This document shows, one piece after another, positions 1,235 to 15,503 of a stretch of 30,265 nt of DNA; position 1 is the first letter of the stretch; each line of letters begins with the position of its first letter. The notes under the pieces were generated by a model that saw only the letters and a program-made list of their open reading frames with translations, was not told where the DNA came from and did no database searches. The position numbers and the translations under genes are program-made. The DNA comes from a virus: IMG/VR virus record IMGVR_UViG_3300030060_001273, positions 1 through 30,265 of that record, one strand, 5' to 3'.

Positions 1235-1644
1235 TTGACATAAAAGCATTAGATGTTGATTCTTGTTGGAGTGATGCATCAGAAGTTTTAAAAGATGCAA
1301 TAGACATGAGTAATGGTCGCCACACTTTAGAGACGACCTACGAAGGATGTAAATTAGGTACAATGAGTTTGTACGGAGTTTTTTATGGAGAAGCAATTTT
1401 GAGTTATTTTGTAACATCACAAGTAATTTACCCAAACAAAAAAATATTAGGAATTATATTTTGTGGTGGCGATAGAGTAATAAAATTTATTAAAGAGATA
1501 GAACACTTTTTTAAATTAGAAGCTATTAAAGAAAACTGCAAAGGATTAGAAATTATAGGAAGAAAAGGTTGGGATAGAATAATTAAAAATACACCTAATC
1601 TTGAGTTCAAAGCTAAAGGAATATTTTATGAAATGGATGCTTAA
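1231..1644 (+). CDS. Acyltransferase-fold-like virion protein (T7 gp13-like position)
   Basis: The protein has 137 residues. The pattern of an early CW, a central strand, and a late LEIIGRKGWDRIIK followed by FYEMDA resembles small phage proteins related to the GNAT acyltransferase fold that sit between tail-tube and internal-core genes. In T7 the protein at this position is gp13, needed for correct internal-core assembly. No clear acetyl-CoA-binding Q/RxxGxG/A loop is seen, so enzyme activity is doubtful. The start overlaps the preceding stop as ATGA, and the next gene begins 17 bases before this one ends. Function is inferred from gene order and weak sequence resemblance. Confidence 0.5.
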   Translation: MIDIKALDVDSCWSDASEVLKDAIDMSNGRHTLETTYEGCKLGTMSLYGVFYGEAILSYFVTSQVIYPNKKILGIIFCGGDRVIKFIKEIEHFFKLEAIKENCKGLEIIGRKGWDRIIKNTPNLEFKAKGIFYEMDA

Positions 1645-2716
1645 ACTTCTACCGAATAAGTTTAAAGTTTGGTTATATAAAAAACTATATTGTGATATTG
1701 CACAACAAGGAGAATATGAAGATACAGAACTAGCTCATGTTAACCCTTATGAAGTAAAGATATTAAAACAAATAGGTGGTAGTGGTGAGGTAAATAGTAA
1801 GACTGGATTACAAGGTTATTTTGGAGGTGGCGGTTCAGCTCCAGCACCAGCTCCATCTGGAGGTTCTGGTACGCAAGAAACTATCTCAAGAGAAGCTCCA
1901 GAAATAGAAGCAAGAAAATTAGCATTATACGATCAAGCTATAGAACTAGCTAGACAACCTATGACTATACCAGAATATCAAGTGGCAGGTCCTTCACCAT
2001 TAGAAAGACAAGCCTTTACACAATCTGGTCAGACTGGTATTGGAGCAGTGCCAGTACAAGCTGGTATCGGTAGCACAGTAGCTGCTGGTCAAACAGCAAT
2101 GCAAGACATAACACAACAAGGCGGTTTGATTGATTCTTTTATGAACCCTTATCAACGATATGTGATTGATGAAATCAATAGACAAAGTGCTATTAAACAA
2201 AACCAACAAGCTGCTCAAGCAGTGGAGGCAGGTGCTTTTGGTGGTGGTAGAGAAGGTATACAAAGAGCAGAAGAAGAAAGATTACGATTAGGGTTAATAG
2301 GTCAAGCACAAGCGGATGCGTTTAAAGATGCACGAGCCTCGGCTCAAGCTCAACAACAGTTTCAAACACAAGCTCTGTTAAATCAAGCAAGTGCGTTTTC
2401 TAATCTAGGACAGACACAACAACAAATGGCTCAGAAAGATATAGCTCAACAATTATCTTCTGGTCAGTTACAAAGAGACATAGCACAAAAAGGTTTGGAA
2501 GCTCAAAGAGCTACAGAAGTTGCAAGACAAGCTGAACCATTTCAAAGAATTGAATTTGCAAAAGGTATTATGACTGCTTTACCAACTACAGCATCACAGA
2601 TTACTGCAACGACAGGACCAGGTGCTAATCCACTAGCACAAGCAGCAGGTGCTGGTATAGGTGCATATGCAGCTTATAATTTATTAAAACCAACTGGACA
2701 ACAAACACCTCAATAG
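1628..2716 (+). CDS. Ala/Gln-rich internal virion protein (gp14-like position)
   Basis: The ATG at 1628 is preferred over an in-frame TTG at 1601 because AAAGGA (1615-1620) lies seven bases upstream; this gives 362 residues. A short basic, amphipathic N-terminus (KWMLKLLPNKFKVWLYKKL) is followed by a Gly/Ala/Pro linker (about residues 65-90). The long Ala/Gln-rich helical body includes FMNPYQRYVIDEINRQ and AGAFGGGREG, a signature seen in many unannotated marine phage structural proteins. The C-terminus is Ala/Gly-rich and mildly hydrophobic. Composition and position match T7 gp14-type proteins, which form part of the internal core and are ejected with the DNA. No catalytic motif is seen. The family is recognised, but its exact role is not established. 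Confidence 0.55.
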   Translation: MKWMLKLLPNKFKVWLYKKLYCDIAQQGEYEDTELAHVNPYEVKILKQIGGSGEVNSKTGLQGYFGGGGSAPAPAPSGGSGTQETISREAPEIEARKLALYDQAIELARQPMTIPEYQVAGPSPLERQAFTQSGQTGIGAVPVQAGIGSTVAAGQTAMQDITQQGGLIDSFMNPYQRYVIDEINRQSAIKQNQQAAQAVEAGAFGGGREGIQRAEEERLRLGLIGQAQADAFKDARASAQAQQQFQTQALLNQASAFSNLGQTQQQMAQKDIAQQLSSGQLQRDIAQKGLEAQRATEVARQAEPFQRIEFAKGIMTALPTTASQITATTGPGANPLAQAAGAGIGAYAAYNLLKPTGQQTPQ

Positions 2717-2723
2717 GATAGAT

Positions 2724-4403
2724 ATGGAAATAGATAACGAAAAATTAAGTGAAGAAGATATAAAATTTGGTTTTGAACCAAGGGCAAATGATGAGTTAAG
2801 AGAAAATATAAAAAACTCTAATACAAATAATCAAAATAACGATAATACACAACCAACAATTGTTACACCTACAACCACGACTACTGCACCAGTGTTCGAA
2901 AGAGACCAAAGAGTTGCTCTAACTTTATTACCTTTAGCGAGTGCATTGTTACAAGGTAAAACACAAGGTGGTCAATCACAGTTATCTGGTTTATTAGCTG
3001 CGACTGGTCAAGGACTTGCTGGTTCAGCAAATGCTGCCTTACAAATTGCACAACTAGAAGCACAAAATGCAAAAACAAAAACGACTACTCCTAAACAATA
3101 CAAGTTGCAACAAGGAGTTGGACAAGTTCAAATAGGTAATAAAATATTTACTCCACAGATGGGCAAAATAATAAGTTTAGATGATGCAACCGTAGCACAA
3201 TATCCAGTAGACACTTTTGTACAAGTTACACCAGATAAGAAAGGCACTATAAAAACTGAAAAGTTTGGTTTGTTTTATGTTGGTAGTAAAGAAGAGGCTA
3301 AAAGATTATATCCAAATAATCCAGAGATACAAAAATTAATAGTAGCAACTACTAAAAATCAAATTGGTAATCCAGTTGTTAAAGACAATCAAAGACTTCT
3401 TGCTAATGTAATATTTAAAGATGGAATACAAACAGAATCAAGACTAGATTTTGCCTCTAAACAACCTACTGGAATGAGAGATATTGCAAAAGGAACTTTA
3501 GAGTATCAACCAGATAAAGCTACTGCAAAAAAATATTTAGCAGACAGAGGAATTAAAGAAGGTATTGAGGGTTATAATTATGTTCTAGGAAAAATAGTAA
3601 ATAAAGATTTAGCAGGAAAGACAGTTTTTGAACAAAATGCAGCTTTAGTTATAAGTGCTGAAGCTCCAGATGTAGCAGGTGCTCCTATTACATCTGTAAA
3701 TTTAGTTCCTGAAAAAGATATAAAAAGTTTTACTTTTGAAACAAGAAAAGGATATGTTAAAAAACTGCAAGATAATTTAGCATCAGCTACTTCTCAATAT
3801 GGTCAATTAGAAAAAAGAATAGATGCAGTTTTAGATGTATTACCTAATACTCCAACAGGTGTAGTAGAAGCTAACTTATTACCTTTTAAAAGATATTTAG
3901 TGGGTCTTGGTTTTGGAGATATGAGTGATGTAAATAAATTGTCTGCTCAAGAATTAATAAAAAGTTCGTCTGATGCGTTAGCTCCATTAATGAGAGAAGC
4001 TGGTGCTGGTTCTACCTCTGATATGGAGTTTGAATCATATAGAAATGCAGCTGTGTCTTTAAAAAATTTACCTTTGGCAAACTATGTAAGTTTATATATG
4101 TTAAAGGCTATCAAAGAAAGTGTTTTACAGAGAACTGCTAAAAGAATAGATTTAGCACAAAATTTAAATAGAAGTACACTTAGTATAGAAGAACAAATTA
4201 AAAAAGAGGATAACGGTATTTTTAGAAAATATACAGGATTAAAAGACGATGCTGAAGAATTAGCATGGCTAAAAACTGTGCCTAGAGGTGAAGTTATTTT
4301 AAATAGGGATAAACTTGGTAATGCTATTTTTACCGATGACGATGGAAACGAGTTAGCTCAGTTTATAGTAAGTGATGGAGAAGGTGGAGCAATATTTCAA
4401 TAG
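2724..4403 (+). CDS. Putative internal/ejection virion protein (559 aa)
   Basis: It starts seven bases after the previous stop, with AGGATAG as a modest ribosome-binding site. The first 50 residues are acidic and Asn/Thr-rich and look disordered. They are followed by a hydrophobic Leu/Ala/Gly helix (about residues 55-110). The middle is a mixed alpha/beta region with repeated short strands (FVQVTPDKKG, GLFYVGSKEEAKRLYP). The C-terminal third is helical, with LMREAGAGSTSDMEFES near residue 430, a Gly-hinge motif often found in phage ejection proteins. It lies between two other large proteins of the same module. The position matches the T7 gp15 slot, but sequence similarity to gp15 cannot be claimed. 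No lytic transglycosylase motif was found. Confidence 0.5.
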   Translation: MEIDNEKLSEEDIKFGFEPRANDELRENIKNSNTNNQNNDNTQPTIVTPTTTTTAPVFERDQRVALTLLPLASALLQGKTQGGQSQLSGLLAATGQGLAGSANAALQIAQLEAQNAKTKTTTPKQYKLQQGVGQVQIGNKIFTPQMGKIISLDDATVAQYPVDTFVQVTPDKKGTIKTEKFGLFYVGSKEEAKRLYPNNPEIQKLIVATTKNQIGNPVVKDNQRLLANVIFKDGIQTESRLDFASKQPTGMRDIAKGTLEYQPDKATAKKYLADRGIKEGIEGYNYVLGKIVNKDLAGKTVFEQNAALVISAEAPDVAGAPITSVNLVPEKDIKSFTFETRKGYVKKLQDNLASATSQYGQLEKRIDAVLDVLPNTPTGVVEANLLPFKRYLVGLGFGDMSDVNKLSAQELIKSSSDALAPLMREAGAGSTSDMEFESYRNAAVSLKNLPLANYVSLYMLKAIKESVLQRTAKRIDLAQNLNRSTLSIEEQIKKEDNGIFRKYTGLKDDAEELAWLKTVPRGEVILNRDKLGNAIFTDDDGNELAQFIVSDGEGGAIFQ

Positions 4404-4411
4404 GATAAATT

Positions 4412-6817
4412 ATGGCATCAATTAAAACAAGCAAATCAGAAGTTAAAAATATAGACAAAGGAATAGAGTTTCCAGATATGCCTGAAATGACAGGAGAGTT
4501 TGCCACATTAGGTGACATACCAGAACAGTTTAAAATTATGTTTACAAGAGGTGCTTTTGGTAAGGCAGAGGTAATTAATAATGCTTATAAAGACGATGAG
4601 AGATATGGTGGAGTTTTTGTAGATAAATTTAACAATCCAATAGTAGTCTTTAATGATAAACCCTTCTATGTTAATAAAAAAGGATTATCTCGTACTGATT
4701 TTTCGGACTTTGCAGCAGAAATGGCAAAATTTGCAGGACCTACAAGAATAATGAGTGCTATTAAGTCTTTTGGTGGTAAAATATTATATGGTGTGCCTTT
4801 ATACGGAGGTACTGAACTAGGTGCAGAGGCTTTGAGTAATTTTTTTGCACCAGAAACTGCTGAAAAAAATGCTAAGTCTTTACAAGATTCTGTAGAGGAT
4901 GCAACAAAAGTTGGAGCATTATCAACAGCGACTGATATACTACTGCCTCCTACTTTTTCTTTAATGGGTCGAGCTGTAAAAAGTGGTACTACTGTGGGAT
5001 TAGATATAGCAAAAAATGTATTTCCTAGATATAAACCTGGTTTAGACAAAGTGACTGGTCAATCAATTTTAAAAGAAGCAGATATTGTAGGAGAAGAAGT
5101 AGCAAAAGAAGAAATACCTTTGACTATAGGACAAAGATTAGGAGATAAAATTCAACAAGGCAGAGAAGAGTTAATAAGATTTAGTAACGCTGCTGGAAAA
5201 AGAGCACAAGAAATTATTACAAACTTTGACGAAAAACAGTTACAAGTTGTTAGAAATATTGCTAATGGTTTAGCTGATAAATTTGGTTCTGGTTCTGGTA
5301 TATTAAAAAGTGAAACACCTATTCAAGATGTGGTAGAAGGCATTACCACCGTAGTTAAAGAAGGTGCAGAAAATATAAAAAAGAAATCTCAAGATTTATA
5401 TACTAAAGTACAAAATTCTGTTGACTCAAATACTGGTGTATCATCTATTGTTGTAGACACAACTACAGCTACCGATTTATCTCAAAAACTTGTACAACAA
5501 CTAGATGACAAAGGTTTAAATGAGGCAACTTTAAAAATTATGCCCATTTTAAAAAATGCTAGAAACCAAATTATAAATGAATTACCAAAAGCAAAAAATT
5601 TAGTTGATATACACAGACTACAAAAAAATATTAATTTACAATTTAGAGAAGCACAAGGAGAGCAAAAAAATTTAATAGGTATGTTAAAAGGTGGTTTAGA
5701 TGATGCTGTGTTTAAAAATATTGATGAGGGTTTATTGCTTGGTGATGAACAAGTTATAAAAGAATTAGCCGAGGCTACTGGCTTGTACAAAGATTACTTA
5801 ACTATTACTGGAAAAATACAAGGTAAAGATTTAGCTAAAAGAAAAGTTAATTCTATTTTAGAAAAACTTACTACAGAAGGTCTGTCTCCTCAACAAGTAG
5901 CTAATAGTATCTTTGGACATAATAAATTAAACAACCCAAGTGAAATGGTTACAGTAATTAATAAATTAGAAGCTATTTTACCTGCTGGTGCGAGAGACCA
6001 AGTAATGAAAAAATTAAAAGATGGTATTTTAGTAAAAGCATTTATGGGTAAAGACCCACTTAAAAATACAGTTGTAAATAGAACTTCAATCGTTAAAAAC
6101 TATAATGCAATATTTAAAGAAGGTAAAGAACTAGTCAACAGATTATTTACTAAAGATGAGTTAAACGCAATAGAAGTATTTAAAGATAAAGTGTTACCAA
6201 CAATAGCAGCAGAACAAAGAATTAATCCATCTGGAACAAGTTATCTAATGTCTACATTTTTAGCAGACACTCTTAAAGGAGGTTTACTATTAAATTTAGC
6301 AGGGTCTTTAGGAAAAACTGTTAGCTCTGTTGGTAGAATGACTCCAGTATTAAGTGAGGCATTTAAAGAGGGTTCTGAACAGATAGCTGAAAAACAAGCA
6401 AATGAAGCCATAGAAAATTTTATAATAAATATGGAAGTAAATCCTTGGATTAGTAGAGTAACTGGACAAGTAGTGAGAAACAAATTAATGGAAGAAAAAG
6501 GTGGGGATGTTGATATAAAAGAACTACCACCAGAGTTAAGACCTCAAAGTGCCATAGAGACTGATGAAGATATATTAGTTGCTGAAGCAGATGTACCAAA
6601 AGAAACACCACAACAAACAATAGGCAACATACAACCTTCACGACCCAACATTAATATTCAACCACCTACTAGAACAACGGAACAACCAGTACAGACTGCT
6701 TCCCTACCTACCACTCCTAATGCAAAAGGTATTGCGTCTCTTAATAAGGGGGAGCAGTTTGGGGGTTTATTTCCACAAGATGATCTAGGTAAGTTAATCG
6801 CTAATAGGAAAGTTTAA
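4412..6817 (+). CDS. Large ejection-type virion protein (801 aa)
   Basis: A long, mainly helical protein starts eight bases after its upstream neighbour. Near residues 65-100, GGVFVDKFNNPIVVFNDKPF followed by YVNKKGLSRTDFSDFAAE is a pattern common to the N-termini of large podovirus internal proteins: a short beta region leading into a membrane-prone helix. A hydrophobic Gly-rich segment follows (about residues 110-150). The central part is long charged helices likely to form coiled coils. The C-terminal 90 residues are Pro/Thr/Gln-rich and disordered, ending in GIASLNKGEQFGGLFPQDDLG. It occupies the T7 gp16-like slot, but the SLT peptidoglycan-hydrolase motif of gp16 was not found. The likely role is passage of DNA across the envelope; this is an inference. 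Confidence 0.5.
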   Translation: MASIKTSKSEVKNIDKGIEFPDMPEMTGEFATLGDIPEQFKIMFTRGAFGKAEVINNAYKDDERYGGVFVDKFNNPIVVFNDKPFYVNKKGLSRTDFSDFAAEMAKFAGPTRIMSAIKSFGGKILYGVPLYGGTELGAEALSNFFAPETAEKNAKSLQDSVEDATKVGALSTATDILLPPTFSLMGRAVKSGTTVGLDIAKNVFPRYKPGLDKVTGQSILKEADIVGEEVAKEEIPLTIGQRLGDKIQQGREELIRFSNAAGKRAQEIITNFDEKQLQVVRNIANGLADKFGSGSGILKSETPIQDVVEGITTVVKEGAENIKKKSQDLYTKVQNSVDSNTGVSSIVVDTTTATDLSQKLVQQLDDKGLNEATLKIMPILKNARNQIINELPKAKNLVDIHRLQKNINLQFREAQGEQKNLIGMLKGGLDDAVFKNIDEGLLLGDEQVIKELAEATGLYKDYLTITGKIQGKDLAKRKVNSILEKLTTEGLSPQQVANSIFGHNKLNNPSEMVTVINKLEAILPAGARDQVMKKLKDGILVKAFMGKDPLKNTVVNRTSIVKNYNAIFKEGKELVNRLFTKDELNAIEVFKDKVLPTIAAEQRINPSGTSYLMSTFLADTLKGGLLLNLAGSLGKTVSSVGRMTPVLSEAFKEGSEQIAEKQANEAIENFIINMEVNPWISRVTGQVVRNKLMEEKGGDVDIKELPPELRPQSAIETDEDILVAEADVPKETPQQTIGNIQPSRPNINIQPPTRTTEQPVQTASLPTTPNAKGIASLNKGEQFGGLFPQDDLGKLIANRKV

Positions 6818-6818
6818 A

Positions 6819-7049
6819 ATGGATAATATGATGTTATGGAACATCTTGCTAACACTGTTAGCTACTGGATTTGGTTGGGCATTTAATAAAATGTTTCAAG
6901 AAATAAAACGATTACAAATACTTCTCAATAAAACTAGAGAAGAGTATCTACCTAAAAAAGATTTTAATTCTGATTTTAAGGAGGTCTTAAATTATCTTCG
7001 TAGACTAGAGGATAAGCTAGATAGACACATGGAGAATAATCGTGGATGA
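6819..7049 (+). CDS. Small membrane-anchored coiled-coil protein
   Basis: The 76-residue protein has an N-terminal transmembrane helix (about residues 4-24, LWNILLTLLATGFGWAF) followed by a charged heptad-like helix (KMFQEIKRLQILLNKTREEYLPKKDF, then LNYLRRLEDKLDRHMEN). Proteins with this W-rich helix and the K-T-R-E-E and R-L-E-D-K-L-D pattern are widespread in phages, with some resembling holins or spanin-like accessory proteins. A holin role is possible, but one transmembrane segment and the virion-gene context do not decide it. The start is one base after the previous stop, and its end overlaps the next gene by eight bases. Confidence 0.6.
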   Translation: MDNMMLWNILLTLLATGFGWAFNKMFQEIKRLQILLNKTREEYLPKKDFNSDFKEVLNYLRRLEDKLDRHMENNRG

Positions 7050-10000
7050 AGAACAAGGTATCACTGCCCTAGGACCAGAGGATTTAGGTACTGTAGAGGT
7101 TACTCCAAATGTTGAAGAGACAGAACAAAAGGAATCTGCGTTTCCACAATTTACAGATGAAGCGAAAAGGCAAAGAGGTATTGAGGGATTTAAATCATTT
7201 AAGAAGGGTTTTAAACAGGCTTTACCATATATAGGACAGTTAGGTGCAGATTTAGTACCTGGTTCTGGTATTACAGAAATATTTGGACAACAAATTGATG
7301 TAGTAGAAGGAGGTAAAAGACTATCCTTTCCAAAACAAGTTGAAAGAACCACAGAATTAGCTAAAGAAGGTAAAACTACTGAGGCTATAGTTAGTGGTGT
7401 TGACACATTACTGACAGGAGCTGCTGGTGCTGGTGAAGGTATGATGGTTGCTGGAGCAGTTCTACCTTCAATTTATGGTAAGGCTTTATCGATTGCTGGA
7501 TGGGGATTATATGGATTATCAAAAGGTGGAAGAGCAATATTAAGAAACACTAAAACTGGTAAAAAAATATTAGCTGATATTGAAGGAAATGCACAGACTG
7601 GTTATGATATTAAAAGTATTAAAATTCCTGAAAATGTAGAATCTGATGACACTATTAAAACATTAGAAGATAATATAGATATAGAAACTGTGAAGACAGA
7701 TGACACCGATACAGAAGTTGCTATACCTGAAAACATAAAAGACTTAAATAACACAGAAGCGATTACCTCTTATGTTATAGCACCAGAGGATGTAAATAGA
7801 AATCAATTAATTGCAAAGATTGAAAACGACCCAGAAGTAAAAGCTAAGACAGATAAATATTTAGAGGAAAAAGGTTTTACGGAAGAAACTGTACCAGTAT
7901 TTAGATTAATTACTCCTAATAAAAAAGGTGCAGAGATTGGAGAAGAAAGTATAATATCTGGTTCATTAACACCAGAATCTAATATAGCCACTATGAGATA
8001 TTTTCAAGGAAGAGGTGGAGGTCAAAAACAATTAGTTCGTTATGATGTTCCAAAAAGTAGAATAAAGTTAGCTATGGGTGGTGTTAAAAATGACATTAAA
8101 CAAAGCTCAAATAAAATTATAAAAGAAAAAGGTATTGGTCAAACAGAACCTAAAAGAACTATGGCTGATTTGAGAGCAGAAGCTATGGGTGGTGGTAGAT
8201 TAAAAAGCAAAGTTACTAACCCAAGCAAAACAGCAAAAGAATTAATAGATATGCAAGATGAAGTAATTGCTGATGTTACTGGTTTGAAAAAAAATGTTTA
8301 TGAAGGAAATTATAATGAAATACTAGCAAATGATGTAGTAGAAAATATTACAAAAGGTAAGTATAAAAACTACGAACAAATGCAATCTGATTTACCTTCA
8401 AATAGAGATTTTACCACAAGTAAAGATGTTGATGATTTGTTTAGTAAAAAAGTTACATATGAACAGTTTGAAAAAATAAAAGATGACAGAGCAAAAGAAA
8501 CTTTTGATAAAGTAGTAAACTTTTACAAGTTAGATGCACCTAAACAAGATGAAGGTATCAAGGCTCTAGGACCTAAGACGATAGAAGATATAATCAAACC
8601 TAAAGGTGAAATACGAAGCCAAGGAGGTTTTAAATTTAATCCAGAAGTAACACAAAAGAACTTACGACTTCAAAAGACTAGATTAAAAAAGTTAAAAGAA
8701 GGAGTGCAAACAGCAGGAGAACCAAAAAACAAAAGAATAGTTTTAAAATCAGATAATCCAGATAATCCAGATTTTGCTATTGGTAAAATTAATTTTGACG
8801 ATTGGACTAAAAGAGTAGAAAAAGTTTTATCAGATGACGAAATAAAAGGAGCAACTAATTGGTATAGTGAAGTTTATGATTATTTTAAATCAGCTCCATA
8901 TATTAAAAGTGAGGAAGAAGCAAAGACTTTAGCTCAAGCATGGTTTGCTGGTGCACAAAGAAAGTCTCCACAAAAAGCATTAGCTAATGTTCTGTCAATA
9001 AGAAGTTTATTAAGACAAGGTAAAACTCCAGAAGAAATATTGGCAATGGACAAGATAGAAGAGGGTGGAACAGAACCTGCTACTAAAGCCATATTATCTG
9101 TGCTTACTGGAAGAGAGGCATCTGGTGTGGGTTTTAAAATATCAGATTTTCGAGACAACTTAGATAATAAAAATGTTAGGTCTGTTATGGGTAATGACCC
9201 AGAGGGTGGACAACCTTTTACAGTTGATGTTCACACAGGAAGAGATATGGGTTTAGTTGACCCATCTTTGTTAAGTTTATTAAAAGACAAGGGATATAAA
9301 ATACCAGATAATATTATAGATGATTTTGGTGAAGGTGGATTATCAAATGACTTGTATCAAAATAGAGCAATATTTGGTCTTGAGTTAACAGACCATTTAA
9401 ATAAAATTAAATGGAAAGGTAAAGACGATTGGCAACCCTCTGAAATACAAGCGATAGGTTGGACTACTTTAACAAATCTTTATGGGGGTGCTAATACTGC
9501 TGGTAATATCAAAGATGCTTTAAATTTAAATGTCCGTAGAGTTTCTATGGAAGTAAAACCTGGTACTGGCTCACCTTGGGATAAAATGTTTGGAAAAGAT
9601 TACTCTGAATTACCCATAAGCGACCAAATTAAAATTAACGATGAAATTACTAATGAAGCAATAAATGAAATAGCAAAAAGTGAAAATGTAGATTTATATA
9701 ACAATGTATTTGGTACTGGTGGTTGGCAAACTTATGTTAACCCAAGTACAGTTCAAGAAATTTTAGGTATTAAAAGTGAGGCAATACGAATAGGAGCTAA
9801 ATTAGGATATGTTCTTAATCAAACAGAAATTTATATTAATGGCTCTAAAGCATTGACTAAAAATCCTCAAGCATACACATACGATTTAGTTGAAAGAGAT
9901 TCTACAAAATTAAGAGACTCAAAATACATTAATGATTTGTTTACTCAAATATATGAAAAAACAAATGGTGTCATAGTTGGTTTTCAACCTATTGAAACCA

Positions 10001-10497
10001 TAGATAACAAAATTGGTATTAGAATGATTGTAGGACCAGATACAGTTAATCAATTTTATAAAGATAGAAAAATACCTAAAAAAGGTAATGAAAGTAAAAA
10101 AAATCAATTCTTTGAAAAGGATTTGCAAAAACAAATAGAGGATGTTATAAAGAATACAGACGAAGAATTTGATTTATTTACAACTGAATCTGATTTAACA
10201 GTTTTAAAAAACGATTGGAAAAACAAAGGAGAAGAAGATGGGCAAAATTATAAACAATATTTTAGTAAGAAAACCGTCACAGATGCTACAACTGAAAGCG
10301 ACAGGGTACTCGATAATATTAGGCAAAAACTTACGGACAGCTTCAGAGACAAAATCAGAAATGCCCAAGGAACAAAAAGACCAGACACAGAAGAAGTCTT
10401 AGTACCAGAAGATATAAATACTGAAAACATACCTAAAAAATCTATTGGAGGTTTTATAGAACGAAACACCTACGACTGGGTGTATCTCGATGGTTGA
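7042..10497 (+). CDS. Giant multidomain virion protein with ART-like and DUF7178-like regions
   Basis: A GTG start at 7042 behind GGAG (7031-7034) gives 1151 residues. An acidic N-terminus carries GITALGP (residues 6-12); a helical, Gly/Ala-rich membrane-prone region lies at about 60-175; an acidic Thr/Asp linker follows. Residues about 284-347 (VPVFRL, then a Ser/Thr stretch, then NIATMRYF and LVRYDVPKSRIKL) resemble the beta core of an ADP-ribosyltransferase-like fold found in phage MuF-type and polyvalent proteins; a clear catalytic ExE/QxE is missing. A second GIKALGP occurs near residue 506. Residues about 603-735 (NWYSEVYDYF to VDVHTGRDMGL) have the shape of a DUF7178-like domain (WY...A...SP...VDxHxxR). 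The C-terminus IGGFIERNTYDW is a tail motif seen in marine phage proteins. Probably carried in the virion and delivered to the host; activities are not established. Confidence 0.5.
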   Translation: MDEEQGITALGPEDLGTVEVTPNVEETEQKESAFPQFTDEAKRQRGIEGFKSFKKGFKQALPYIGQLGADLVPGSGITEIFGQQIDVVEGGKRLSFPKQVERTTELAKEGKTTEAIVSGVDTLLTGAAGAGEGMMVAGAVLPSIYGKALSIAGWGLYGLSKGGRAILRNTKTGKKILADIEGNAQTGYDIKSIKIPENVESDDTIKTLEDNIDIETVKTDDTDTEVAIPENIKDLNNTEAITSYVIAPEDVNRNQLIAKIENDPEVKAKTDKYLEEKGFTEETVPVFRLITPNKKGAEIGEESIISGSLTPESNIATMRYFQGRGGGQKQLVRYDVPKSRIKLAMGGVKNDIKQSSNKIIKEKGIGQTEPKRTMADLRAEAMGGGRLKSKVTNPSKTAKELIDMQDEVIADVTGLKKNVYEGNYNEILANDVVENITKGKYKNYEQMQSDLPSNRDFTTSKDVDDLFSKKVTYEQFEKIKDDRAKETFDKVVNFYKLDAPKQDEGIKALGPKTIEDIIKPKGEIRSQGGFKFNPEVTQKNLRLQKTRLKKLKEGVQTAGEPKNKRIVLKSDNPDNPDFAIGKINFDDWTKRVEKVLSDDEIKGATNWYSEVYDYFKSAPYIKSEEEAKTLAQAWFAGAQRKSPQKALANVLSIRSLLRQGKTPEEILAMDKIEEGGTEPATKAILSVLTGREASGVGFKISDFRDNLDNKNVRSVMGNDPEGGQPFTVDVHTGRDMGLVDPSLLSLLKDKGYKIPDNIIDDFGEGGLSNDLYQNRAIFGLELTDHLNKIKWKGKDDWQPSEIQAIGWTTLTNLYGGANTAGNIKDALNLNVRRVSMEVKPGTGSPWDKMFGKDYSELPISDQIKINDEITNEAINEIAKSENVDLYNNVFGTGGWQTYVNPSTVQEILGIKSEAIRIGAKLGYVLNQTEIYINGSKALTKNPQAYTYDLVERDSTKLRDSKYINDLFTQIYEKTNGVIVGFQPIETIDNKIGIRMIVGPDTVNQFYKDRKIPKKGNESKKNQFFEKDLQKQIEDVIKNTDEEFDLFTTESDLTVLKNDWKNKGEEDGQNYKQYFSKKTVTDATTESDRVLDNIRQKLTDSFRDKIRNAQGTKRPDTEEVLVPEDINTENIPKKSIGGFIERNTYDWVYLDG

Positions 10498-11416: not shown

Positions 11417-12109
11417 ATGGCATATTTAACTGCAAACATACCTTACTTTAAATGTTGGGTAAGAAAAGAATTTACACACAATCATAGACAGTATCATGGC
11501 GAGTTCGTACACGCACTTGCCATTGCGGTTACTTGTATACCTGATAGATCTTTATCTTTTCAAGTTGTGTTTACTGGTTGTGAAGATGAAGCTACAAGAA
11601 CAGAGAGTCCACATGGTGGAGCTATGTGGGCAAGGATGCCAATACAAAGTTTGGTAGCTGATGAAATGCTAGATGACTACCCTCCACGAATCCAGAATCA
11701 TTGGGTACAACCTTGGGATTGCTCAAGTAGAGATTTCAGTATTATAAAATACGATAGAGCAAGTAGTTCTCCTTGGATTACAAAAATAGATGGTGAGTTT
11801 TATAATGCTAAATATTATTTTACTATAGACTACACAAACGGAGATGACATGAACGCATTAGGTGATGATGTAGCACAACACAAACAATCTCATGTACTAG
11901 CAATAACTAGTGGTGAGTTTAAAGGTCAGATAGTAGCACAACCAAATAACAGAGTAAGAGCAACTAATCCTGCATTATGGGTAACTGGTTCTGGTGCTCC
12001 AGATTTTGTTCCTAGTCAATATGAGTTTAGTGCAGAAGATGATGAGTCTTACTTAGATCCAGAATATACTTTTGATAATTTGTACGCAAAAAAAAAGGAG
12101 ACTAAGTAG
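11417..12109 (+). CDS. Conserved marine-phage protein of unknown function
   Basis: The 230-residue protein is probably soluble and beta-rich. It begins MAYLTANIPYFKCWVRKEF and has HGEFVHALAIAVTC, HGGAMWARMPIQSLV, QPWDCSSRDFS and a late NNRVRATNPALWVTGSGAPDFVPSQ. I recognise this pattern from proteins of uncultured marine phages and pelagiphages, always without a known function. The placement after the internal proteins suggests a virion or assembly role. The ribosome-binding site is weak (GAGG one base before the start), although AACTGC and neighbouring bases give no better start. The 3' end lies inside the stem of a bidirectional terminator and overlaps the convergent minus-strand gene by eight bases. 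Confidence 0.6.
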   Translation: MAYLTANIPYFKCWVRKEFTHNHRQYHGEFVHALAIAVTCIPDRSLSFQVVFTGCEDEATRTESPHGGAMWARMPIQSLVADEMLDDYPPRIQNHWVQPWDCSSRDFSIIKYDRASSSPWITKIDGEFYNAKYYFTIDYTNGDDMNALGDDVAQHKQSHVLAITSGEFKGQIVAQPNNRVRATNPALWVTGSGAPDFVPSQYEFSAEDDESYLDPEYTFDNLYAKKKETK

Positions 12110-14513: not shown

Positions 14514-14546
14514 AAGAAAGTGGCATTAAGCCACCTTCTTTTTTTC
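14514..14546 (+). terminator. Stem-loop with T-tract at the ardC 3' end
   Basis: AAGAAAGTGGC, loop ATTAA, GCCACCTTCTT: ten of eleven pairs, followed on the plus strand by five more T and CTCCC. In that direction it looks like an intrinsic terminator, stopping transcription antisense to the minus-strand operon. On the minus strand it is a strong hairpin (GTGGC/GCCAC) around the ardC stop codon without a U-tract, possibly limiting read-through into the helicase gene. Confidence 0.45.
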
Positions 14547-15458
14547 TCCCTTCTTTTGTAATCCATCCAAGAAGTCGATTGCTTGAGTAGCCTTAGTTAT
14601 TGCTTTCATAACTTGTTCTGGCTTTTTATCAAGTTGTTCAATCCAACCATTTAGATATTGAGCATGGTCACTTCTTACTGTTGGTGATATACCTAACAAA
14701 GTGCTTAATATTGCTGAACCAGTTTCTGCAACTAACTCTTCCATTGCATAAGCATCAGATCCAAAACCACCAGAAAAATCTCTTTTTAATCTTTTATCAC
14801 TACCTGTCCAATGAACTAATTCATGAAGTAATGTACCATAGTAAGATTCAGTATCATGAAAATCTTCAACCTTTGGCATTTTAATAAAGTCACCACTTGG
14901 AGAAAAGAAAGCTCTACCACCGCCAAATTTAATATTAGCTTTTGTCTTAGAAACATAGTTTTCTACATCTTTTAATACAGTAACCTTAGATACTTTTTTC
15001 TCTTCAGTTTTTTTCACGATAGGATAATCTTGAATCTGGCTAGCATTAAAAACTGGATATGGTTGAAAGTACCAAATTTTTTTCTTAACATCTTTTAATT
15101 CTCCACTATCAGTGATAACGCCAAAATCTCTATCTACTACTTCTATAGGAGCATTAAAAAAAACATGATGTGCAGTTTCATGTTTCTTAACATAATATCC
15201 TTTTTTCTTCCATGCATTAGCAGTTCCCCAAAGATTACTTTCATAACCATTGTCTTCAGCTTCCATTGCTAAATTAATAATGTTAAAGCCATGATAAGAT
15301 TTACCATCTGATATTTTTTTTGGTATATCAAATCTTGCAATATTAGAAGTCCAACCTTTTTTCCAGTTAGTACCTTCTGTTTTCATAAGGTGCGTTAATT
15401 TTTTAGCTACCCTATCAATGATTTCTTTTTTAGTTCTTTTTGCTTTATATTTTTTCAT
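14526..15458 (-). CDS. ardC: ArdC-type antirestriction protein (zincin domain)
   Basis: A 310-residue protein with both ArdC parts. The N-terminal ssDNA-binding-like domain (DUF1738 pattern) has WKKGW, NIINLAM and NLWGTANAWKKKGYYVKKHETAHHVFF. The C-terminal metallopeptidase-like domain has HELVHWTG (His212, Glu213, His216) and a downstream AMEELVAE supplying a third acidic ligand. ArdC proteins bind ssDNA and protect incoming DNA from type I restriction; many replicons and phages carry them. I chose ATG 15458 over an in-frame GTG at 15497, because AAAGGAAA precedes it and the promoter's predicted start point falls at about 15497. Its promoter is close to consensus, implying early, strong expression. 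It faces the replication operon across a divergent promoter region. Confidence 0.85.
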   Translation of the reverse strand: MKKYKAKRTKKEIIDRVAKKLTHLMKTEGTNWKKGWTSNIARFDIPKKISDGKSYHGFNIINLAMEAEDNGYESNLWGTANAWKKKGYYVKKHETAHHVFFNAPIEVVDRDFGVITDSGELKDVKKKIWYFQPYPVFNASQIQDYPIVKKTEEKKVSKVTVLKDVENYVSKTKANIKFGGGRAFFSPSGDFIKMPKVEDFHDTESYYGTLLHELVHWTGSDKRLKRDFSGGFGSDAYAMEELVAETGSAILSTLLGISPTVRSDHAQYLNGWIEQLDKKPEQVMKAITKATQAIDFLDGLQKKGEKKKVA

Positions 15459-15503
15459 CGTTTTTTCCTTTGTTTTATTGTGAAAAAAATGTCTCACGAA
15501 TCA

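What the first reader, a model, noticed from the sequence alone, without database searches (positions are those of the whole stretch)
7891..8082. ADP-ribosyltransferase-like region in a 1151-residue virion protein
Residues 284-347 (VPVFRL, a Ser/Thr stretch, then LVRYDVP) follow the outline of ART-fold domains that some phages inject as effectors. The catalytic acidic motif is not obvious, so it could be inactive or misread. If active it would be a virion-borne effector modifying host proteins.
Basis: inference. Interest (0 to 1): 0.55.

Follow-up and report, generated by a model that had tools for sequence, protein, structure and literature searches.

The report
Phage head-linked ADP-ribosyltransferase module
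This stretch of a large phage protein is part of a previously unannotated enzyme-like module, predicted to attach ADP-ribose from NAD to host molecules, that sits in genes beside the phage packaging or ejection genes and is probably injected with the DNA.

Summary
The described residues are real, but the interval is only the middle of a domain of about 187 residues (232-418, window 7735-8295). A 36-sequence alignment gave a confident AlphaFold2 model (pLDDT 86, pTM 0.82): six strands with R288 on strand 1, S306 on strand 2 and E407 on strand 5, the published layout of R-S-E class ADP-ribosyltransferases (PMC7827354). All 50 solved structures listed by VIA-align are ART-superfamily proteins by title or recall, with modest Z (best 5.3). 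R, S, Q and E are invariant in 36 of 36 sequences. Pfam, PHROGs and NCBIfam hold no model for it. Relatives appear only in IMG/VR contigs, none in bacterial genomes or catalogued phages at the sensitivity used. In 20 of 26 sequence clusters the gene adjoins terminase, portal or ejection-like genes, same strand. Best reading: a head- or ejection-delivered ART effector with an intact R-S-QxE site, probably modifying a non-arginine acceptor. Its site differs from the H-Y-D ARTs described for polyvalent proteins. Activity, target and virion presence are inferred.

The parts
7042..10497 (+). 1151-aa carrier protein (polyvalent-like, modular)
   Evidence: open frame; orthologues L002, L003, L005 with module gain or loss; module map
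7042..7728 (+). shared N-terminal region, residues 1-229, with a Gly-rich hydrophobic stretch
   Evidence: blastp of this segment: 40-90% identity (best segment) to the N-terminal regions of the other module-bearing carriers of this type and to L005, which lacks the module
7735..8295 (+). ADP-ribosyltransferase-like module, residues 232-418 (modelled as residues 230-433, window 7729-8340)
   Evidence: AF2 pLDDT 86, pTM 0.82; the 50 VIA rows are ART-superfamily chains; missing from L005
7903..7905 (+). R288, predicted NAD-binding Arg, strand 1
   Evidence: invariant 36 of 36; strand 54-61 of the model; codon checked
7957..7971 (+). S306-G-S308-L-T310, Ser motif, strand 2; S306 invariant
   Evidence: S306 36 of 36; S308 is S/T in 32 and L in 4 of 36; strand 75-79
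8254..8262 (+). Q405-D406-E407, Q-x-E motif with predicted catalytic Glu at the start of strand 5
   Evidence: Q and E invariant 36 of 36; strand 178-182 of the model
8554..10227 (+). second module, residues 505-1062, function unknown; occurs without the ART module in other phage proteins
   Evidence: blastp hits in 15 ORFs without an ART hit
10435..10494 (+). C-terminal tag KKSIGGFIERNTYDWVYLDG shared by otherwise different orthologues
1601..2716 (+). DNA-ejection-like protein upstream
   Evidence: PHROG 4287 'DNA ejection protein', E 1e-7
2724..6817 (+). two further late proteins (559 and 801 aa) between the ejection-like gene and the carrier
   Evidence: same order in the relatives L002, L003, L012, L016

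Best explanation
Residues 232-418 form an R-S-E class ADP-ribosyltransferase with a Q-x-E motif, carried as a swappable module in a large polyvalent-like protein. The protein is probably packaged in the virion (head or ejection apparatus) and delivered with the DNA. In the cell R288 and S306 would hold NAD+, E407 would promote loss of nicotinamide, and ADP-ribose would be passed to a host macromolecule, with Q405 favouring a non-arginine acceptor, as in C3-type enzymes. Shown here: modular conservation, invariant residues, purifying selection, genomic context. Predicted: the fold and the placement of the site. Inferred: packaging, catalysis, target.
For: AF2 model pLDDT 86, pTM 0.82, six strands with R, S and E on strands 1, 2 and 5 and a helix after strand 2, matching the R-S-E description in PMC7827354 (passages seen). 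The 50 rows of VIA-align are ART-superfamily chains; its ranges start at model 53 = cholera A1 residue 1, 52 = pertussis S1 residue 2 and 50 = CARDS residue 1, which with no gap puts R288 on their catalytic Arg (catalytic numbering recalled, residue map not seen). Best viral fold match, E 2.3e-4 and probability 1.00, is a 167-aa Sinorhizobium phage phiN3 protein, probably gp122, which shows R, SWT and E-x-E motifs by eye. R288, S306, Q405, E407 invariant in 36 of 36; 20 of these 36 rows, window included, were reached without a search pattern that contains Q-x-E. dN/dS 0.08-0.19 in 5 of 7 ART pairs. Of 26 clusters, 10 lie between terminase and portal, 6 just before portal with no terminase seen upstream, 2 just after a second terminase-portal pair, 2 after the ejection-like trio.
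Against: VIA Z is at most 5.3, in a range the tool calls middling. Foldseek against the PDB found nothing with E below 0.65. No profile match to an ART family; profile-profile comparison with the phiN3 protein failed (0.7% probability). A first model from 7 sequences was poor (pLDDT 48). The ARTT position that is usually aromatic is I402, and Q405 ends a helix rather than a loop. Sixteen of the 36 rows were found only by a pattern containing Q-x-E, so those rows do not test that motif. Six of 26 clusters have no packaging gene within 2.6 kb. No evidence that the protein is in the virion or active.
Confidence: 0.68

Rival explanations
1. An ART-fold enzyme that consumes NAD+ itself (NADase or NAD+ phosphorylase, as in RES-type members), depleting NAD+ or blocking NAD+-based defence rather than modifying a macromolecule.
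For: The structure list includes MbcT and NatT, recalled as NAD+-degrading toxins; PMC9503650 says some phage ARTs may be NADases or NAD+ phosphorylases.
Against: The Q-x-E pair two residues apart is the transfer-specificity motif of R-S-E transferases (PMC7827354) and is invariant. NADase activity cannot be excluded by sequence.
Confidence: 0.15
2. An ART fold kept as an inactive, NAD-binding or purely structural domain.
For: Modest fold scores; non-canonical ARTT region; unusually long stretch of about 70 residues between the YDVP strand and Q-x-E.
Against: R, S, Q and E are invariant in 36 of 36 while the lowest identity between clusters is 30%; low dN/dS in 5 of 7 ART pairs.
Confidence: 0.1
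3. Not an ART: a different small alpha/beta fold with chance resemblance.
For: No sequence-profile match to ART families; no significant PDB Foldseek E-value. NCBIfam gives weak matches of 11 of 36 members to prephenate dehydrogenase (best 1e-4) and one Pfam match to RsgA (2e-4).
Against: All 50 listed structural matches are one superfamily, and strand order and positions of the invariant R, S and E agree with it. The window sequence itself matches neither NCBIfam nor Pfam.
Confidence: 0.07

Closest known systems
R-S-E class ARTs (cholera A1, pertussis S1, C3, CARDS type)
   Same: predicted six-strand core with R on strand 1, S on strand 2, E on strand 5 and Q/E-x-E
   Different: no detectable sequence similarity; I402 instead of an aromatic residue in the ARTT position; helical insert before Q-x-E; found in phage packaging or ejection loci
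T4 Alt / ModA / ModB (Alt/VIP2 clade, R-S-E-2)
   Same: phage ART; Alt is packaged and injected; R-S-E site (PMC5512222 section 9)
   Different: Pfam PF03496, which finds T4 Alt at 4e-38, does not match any of the 36 members at E up to 1; Alt is not a multi-module polyvalent-like protein
Tox-ART-HYD2 ARTs of polyvalent proteins (Iyer et al. 2017)
   Same: ART inside large modular phage proteins thought to be injected
   Different: their site is H-Y-D (PMC5512222 section 9); [quoted passage not shown]
Sinorhizobium phage phiN3 gp122 (AKF13389.1, unannotated)
   Same: best viral structure match if, as length and ART-like motifs suggest, it is A0A0F6WCN0; R, SWT, E-x-E motifs by eye
   Different: stand-alone 167 aa, E-x-E instead of Q-x-E, no sequence-level match

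Membership tests
[quoted passage not shown]
   predicted: six strands, helix after strand 2; the 50 VIA rows are ART chains
R-S-E class ADP-ribosyltransferases | Arg on strand 1, Ser on strand 2, Glu on strand 5 | tested here: met
   R288, S306, E407; invariant 36 of 36
R-S-E class ADP-ribosyltransferases | E/Q-x-E in the ARTT motif | tested here: met
   Q405-D-E407
R-S-E class ADP-ribosyltransferases | aromatic residue at ARTT position 3 | tested here: not met
   I402; SdeA and SidE also lack it (PMC7827354 passages)
R-S-E class ADP-ribosyltransferases | NAD-dependent ADP-ribose transfer | not testable with these tools
   needs purified protein
Alt/VIP2 clade (PF03496) | sequence profile match | tested here: not met
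   not among Pfam matches of any of 36 members at E up to 1
Tox-ART-HYD2 ARTs of polyvalent proteins | His, Tyr, Asp at strands 1, 2 and 5 | tested here: not met
   Arg, Ser, Glu instead
Polyvalent proteins | several unrelated (mostly enzymatic) domains in one polypeptide | tested here: inconclusive
   window: ART plus uncharacterised module; relatives add a methyltransferase-like domain (L003 Methyltransf_23 0.0023, below cut-off; L012 phrog_4752 1.1e-16); L064 matches Pfam LPD23 above cut-off
Polyvalent proteins | gene among packaging or virion genes | tested here: met
   20 of 26 clusters beside terminase, portal or ejection-like genes, same strand

The most novel reading that the evidence does not exclude
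A separate, unnamed clade of R-S-QxE ARTs has spread as an interchangeable cassette through phage packaging loci (the terminase-portal slot and the slot after the ejection proteins), giving uncultured phages a polymorphic-toxin-like set of injected effectors whose acceptor is not arginine.
Probability: 0.5. Interest if true: 0.65.

Novelty: new variant of a known kind. Interest (0 to 1): 0.52.

Why it matters
Injected phage ARTs are known mainly from T4 Alt and inferred for polyvalent proteins with an H-Y-D site. An R-S-QxE clade in a modular protein beside packaging genes widens the set of likely first-minutes effectors, gives a profile with which to annotate dark phage proteins, and names exact residues (R288, S306, Q405, E407) for testing. 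PMC9503650 reports ARTs in only 3% of podo- and siphoviruses, so a profile-invisible clade would mean undercounting.

Tried and rejected
Sequence routes that led nowhere: Pfam, PHROGs and NCBIfam scans of the domain; phmmer and hmmsearch against PDB sequences (one chance hit to RRN6, E 0.12); tblastn of catalogued phages with the whole protein, the window domain and two relatives (only one chance hit, E 1); two scans of bacterial genome contigs (no relatives); profile-profile with the phiN3 protein; profile A5 and PF03496 in phiN3 (no match). T4 ModA/ModB were located but not compared. The first AF2 model (7 sequences) was poor and not used for fold search.

Dropped before counts: domain matches shorter than 160 aa and duplicate or contained sequences (102 domain matches to 36 sequences); all 102 ORFs were clustered, short pieces included, which leaves two halves of one broken ORF (L059) as two of the six clusters without packaging neighbours. 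The weak NCBIfam, Pfam (RsgA) and RRN6 matches are treated as chance because the window sequence itself does not match the first two and the cut-offs are not met or not shown.

Full report
Observation. The three named features are there. The window is a 30,265-base virus record with terminase, DNA polymerase, primase and helicase-like genes and, on the same strand upstream of the carrier, a protein matching PHROG 4287 'DNA ejection protein' at 1e-7, followed by two more large proteins and then the carrier.

The module. Relatives of the whole protein showed mosaic architecture: L002 and L003 carry the region, L005 has the same N-terminus and C-terminal tag but lacks residues of about 229-505. 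Searches with the region, with the acidic motif, with an independent motif and with a diverse alignment gave a family of 102 ORF hits over overlapping loci, reduced to 36 distinct domain sequences of at least 160 aa. These fall into 16 clusters at 80% identity with lowest pairwise identity 30%. The module sits early, in the middle or late in its carriers, whose open frames here run from about 290 (cut by a contig end) to about 1,860 residues. The window's residues 505-1062 form another module, found in 15 ORFs without an ART hit. No relative was found in bacterial genome contigs or in 50,697 phage records at the sensitivity used.

Active site. In all 36 sequences R288, S306, Q405 and E407 (window numbering) are invariant; 19 of 204 columns are invariant in the 16 cluster representatives. 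Because one search used a pattern containing Q-x-E, I separated the rows: 20 of 36, window included, come from contigs also reached by patterns without it (six relatives, ten) or do not fit that pattern (L110, L119, L120), and all 20 keep Q-x-E; the other 16 do not test it. A rough chance figure for the four positions falling among 19 of 204 columns is 6e-5; it is post hoc. Purifying selection is seen in 5 of 7 ART-domain pairs (dN/dS 0.08-0.19); one pair has no synonymous change and one gives 0.72.

Fold. A model from 7 sequences was poor (pLDDT 48). With 36 sequences AlphaFold2 gave pLDDT 86, pTM 0.82. Its strands are 54-61, 75-79, 100-108, 112-115, 178-182 and 188-193 with a helix 82-93 after the second; model residues R59, S77 and E178 (R288, S306, E407) fall on strands 1, 2 and 5. 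The review PMC7827354 (passages seen) describes exactly that: six strands and a helix, R, S and E on strands 1, 2 and 5, and E/Q-x-E in the ARTT motif. VIA-align 2, over the 311 chains Foldseek ranks highest, lists 50 entries; all are ART-superfamily proteins by title or, for SAIP and CNFy domain 4 among others, by recall. The scores are modest (best Z 5.3, rmsd 4.9, 125 aligned; TreTu Z 5.2, rmsd 3.0, 94 aligned) and Foldseek alone is not significant against the PDB. Against viral models two matches pass E 0.001; the best is a phiN3 protein of 167 aa. Of 14 frames of that length in phiN3, one reads like an ART (R, SWT, E-x-E by eye) and is an annotated hypothetical CDS, gp122; its identity with the database entry is inferred from length and motifs, and its best Pfam match is DRAT, another ART, at a non-significant 0.16. 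Differences from textbook members: the usually aromatic ARTT residue is I402, and the segment before Q-x-E is a helix with a longer insert.

Delivery context. PHROGs identify terminase and portal genes around module carriers in several contigs. With small HMMs for these and for the ejection-like trio, 26 sequence clusters of module ORFs gave 10 terminase-module-portal, 6 module-portal where no terminase was seen upstream, 2 second-type terminase-portal-module, 2 ejection trio-module (the window's type), and 6 with nothing recognised within 2.6 kb, two of which are halves of one broken ORF. Every neighbour recognised within that distance is on the same strand. PMC9503650 (abstract, passages, section 3.3.1) treats such neighbourhoods as a sign of head packaging. 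This is context, not proof.

Mechanism. Most likely the carrier is packaged and delivered with the DNA, the module binds NAD+ through R288 and S306, E407 drives nicotinamide loss, and ADP-ribose goes to a host macromolecule. PMC7827354 ties Glu at the first position of E/Q-x-E to arginine acceptors (Ia) and Gln to asparagine (C3), so a non-arginine acceptor is favoured. Acceptor, activity and packaging are inferred. NADase action and a silent ART fold remain possible.

Comparison with what is known. It works like an R-S-E ART and meets that class's structural and residue features by prediction, except the ARTT aromatic. It is not matched by PF03496, which finds T4 Alt at 4e-38 but none of the 36 members. 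It does not have the H-Y-D site of polyvalent-protein ARTs; [quoted passage not shown] The carrier resembles a polyvalent protein: one relative matches LPD23 above cut-off (L064), others carry methyltransferase-like regions. Literature searches listed no paper that by title or abstract describes this family; that covers only the open-licence library and those terms.

Verdict. A new variant of a known kind: an unannotated R-S-QxE ART clade in phage packaging and ejection loci.

Noticed in passing
L012 ORF 7290-10412: After the ART module this carrier has a region matching PHROG 2579 (ParB C-terminal domain, 2.9e-27), with a YR-type motif that by eye could be a second ART-like domain, and a tRNA-methyltransferase-like region (phrog_4752, 1.1e-16).
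   Followed up: partly
L016 8948-8951: An in-frame TAG splits the carrier into 553 and 536 residue frames, the second still ending in the shared C-terminal tag: natural truncation, read-through or assembly error.
   Followed up: no
window 8554-10227: Uncharacterised module (residues 505-1062) present in 15 ORFs without an ART hit.
   Followed up: partly
window 10435-10494: C-terminal tag GGFIERNTYDWVY-DG kept in orthologues whose middle parts differ; might be a packaging or delivery signal.
   Followed up: partly
window 14526-15497 (-): Anti-restriction protein (phrog_7245, 2.8e-74) next to a DNA-helicase-like gene on the opposite strand.
   Followed up: no
window 11417-12109: Match to PHROG 3704 labelled ferredoxin (1.9e-32) just downstream of the carrier.
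   Followed up: no
phiN3 KR052482.1 79598-80101 (L133): Hypothetical protein gp122 looks like an unannotated R-S-ExE ART by eye, with relatives in other Sinorhizobium and in Vibrio phages.
   Followed up: partly
L001 / L054 (one contig, 3300030118_000500): Carrier broken into 797 and 362 residue frames compared with L002: frameshift or assembly error.
   Followed up: no
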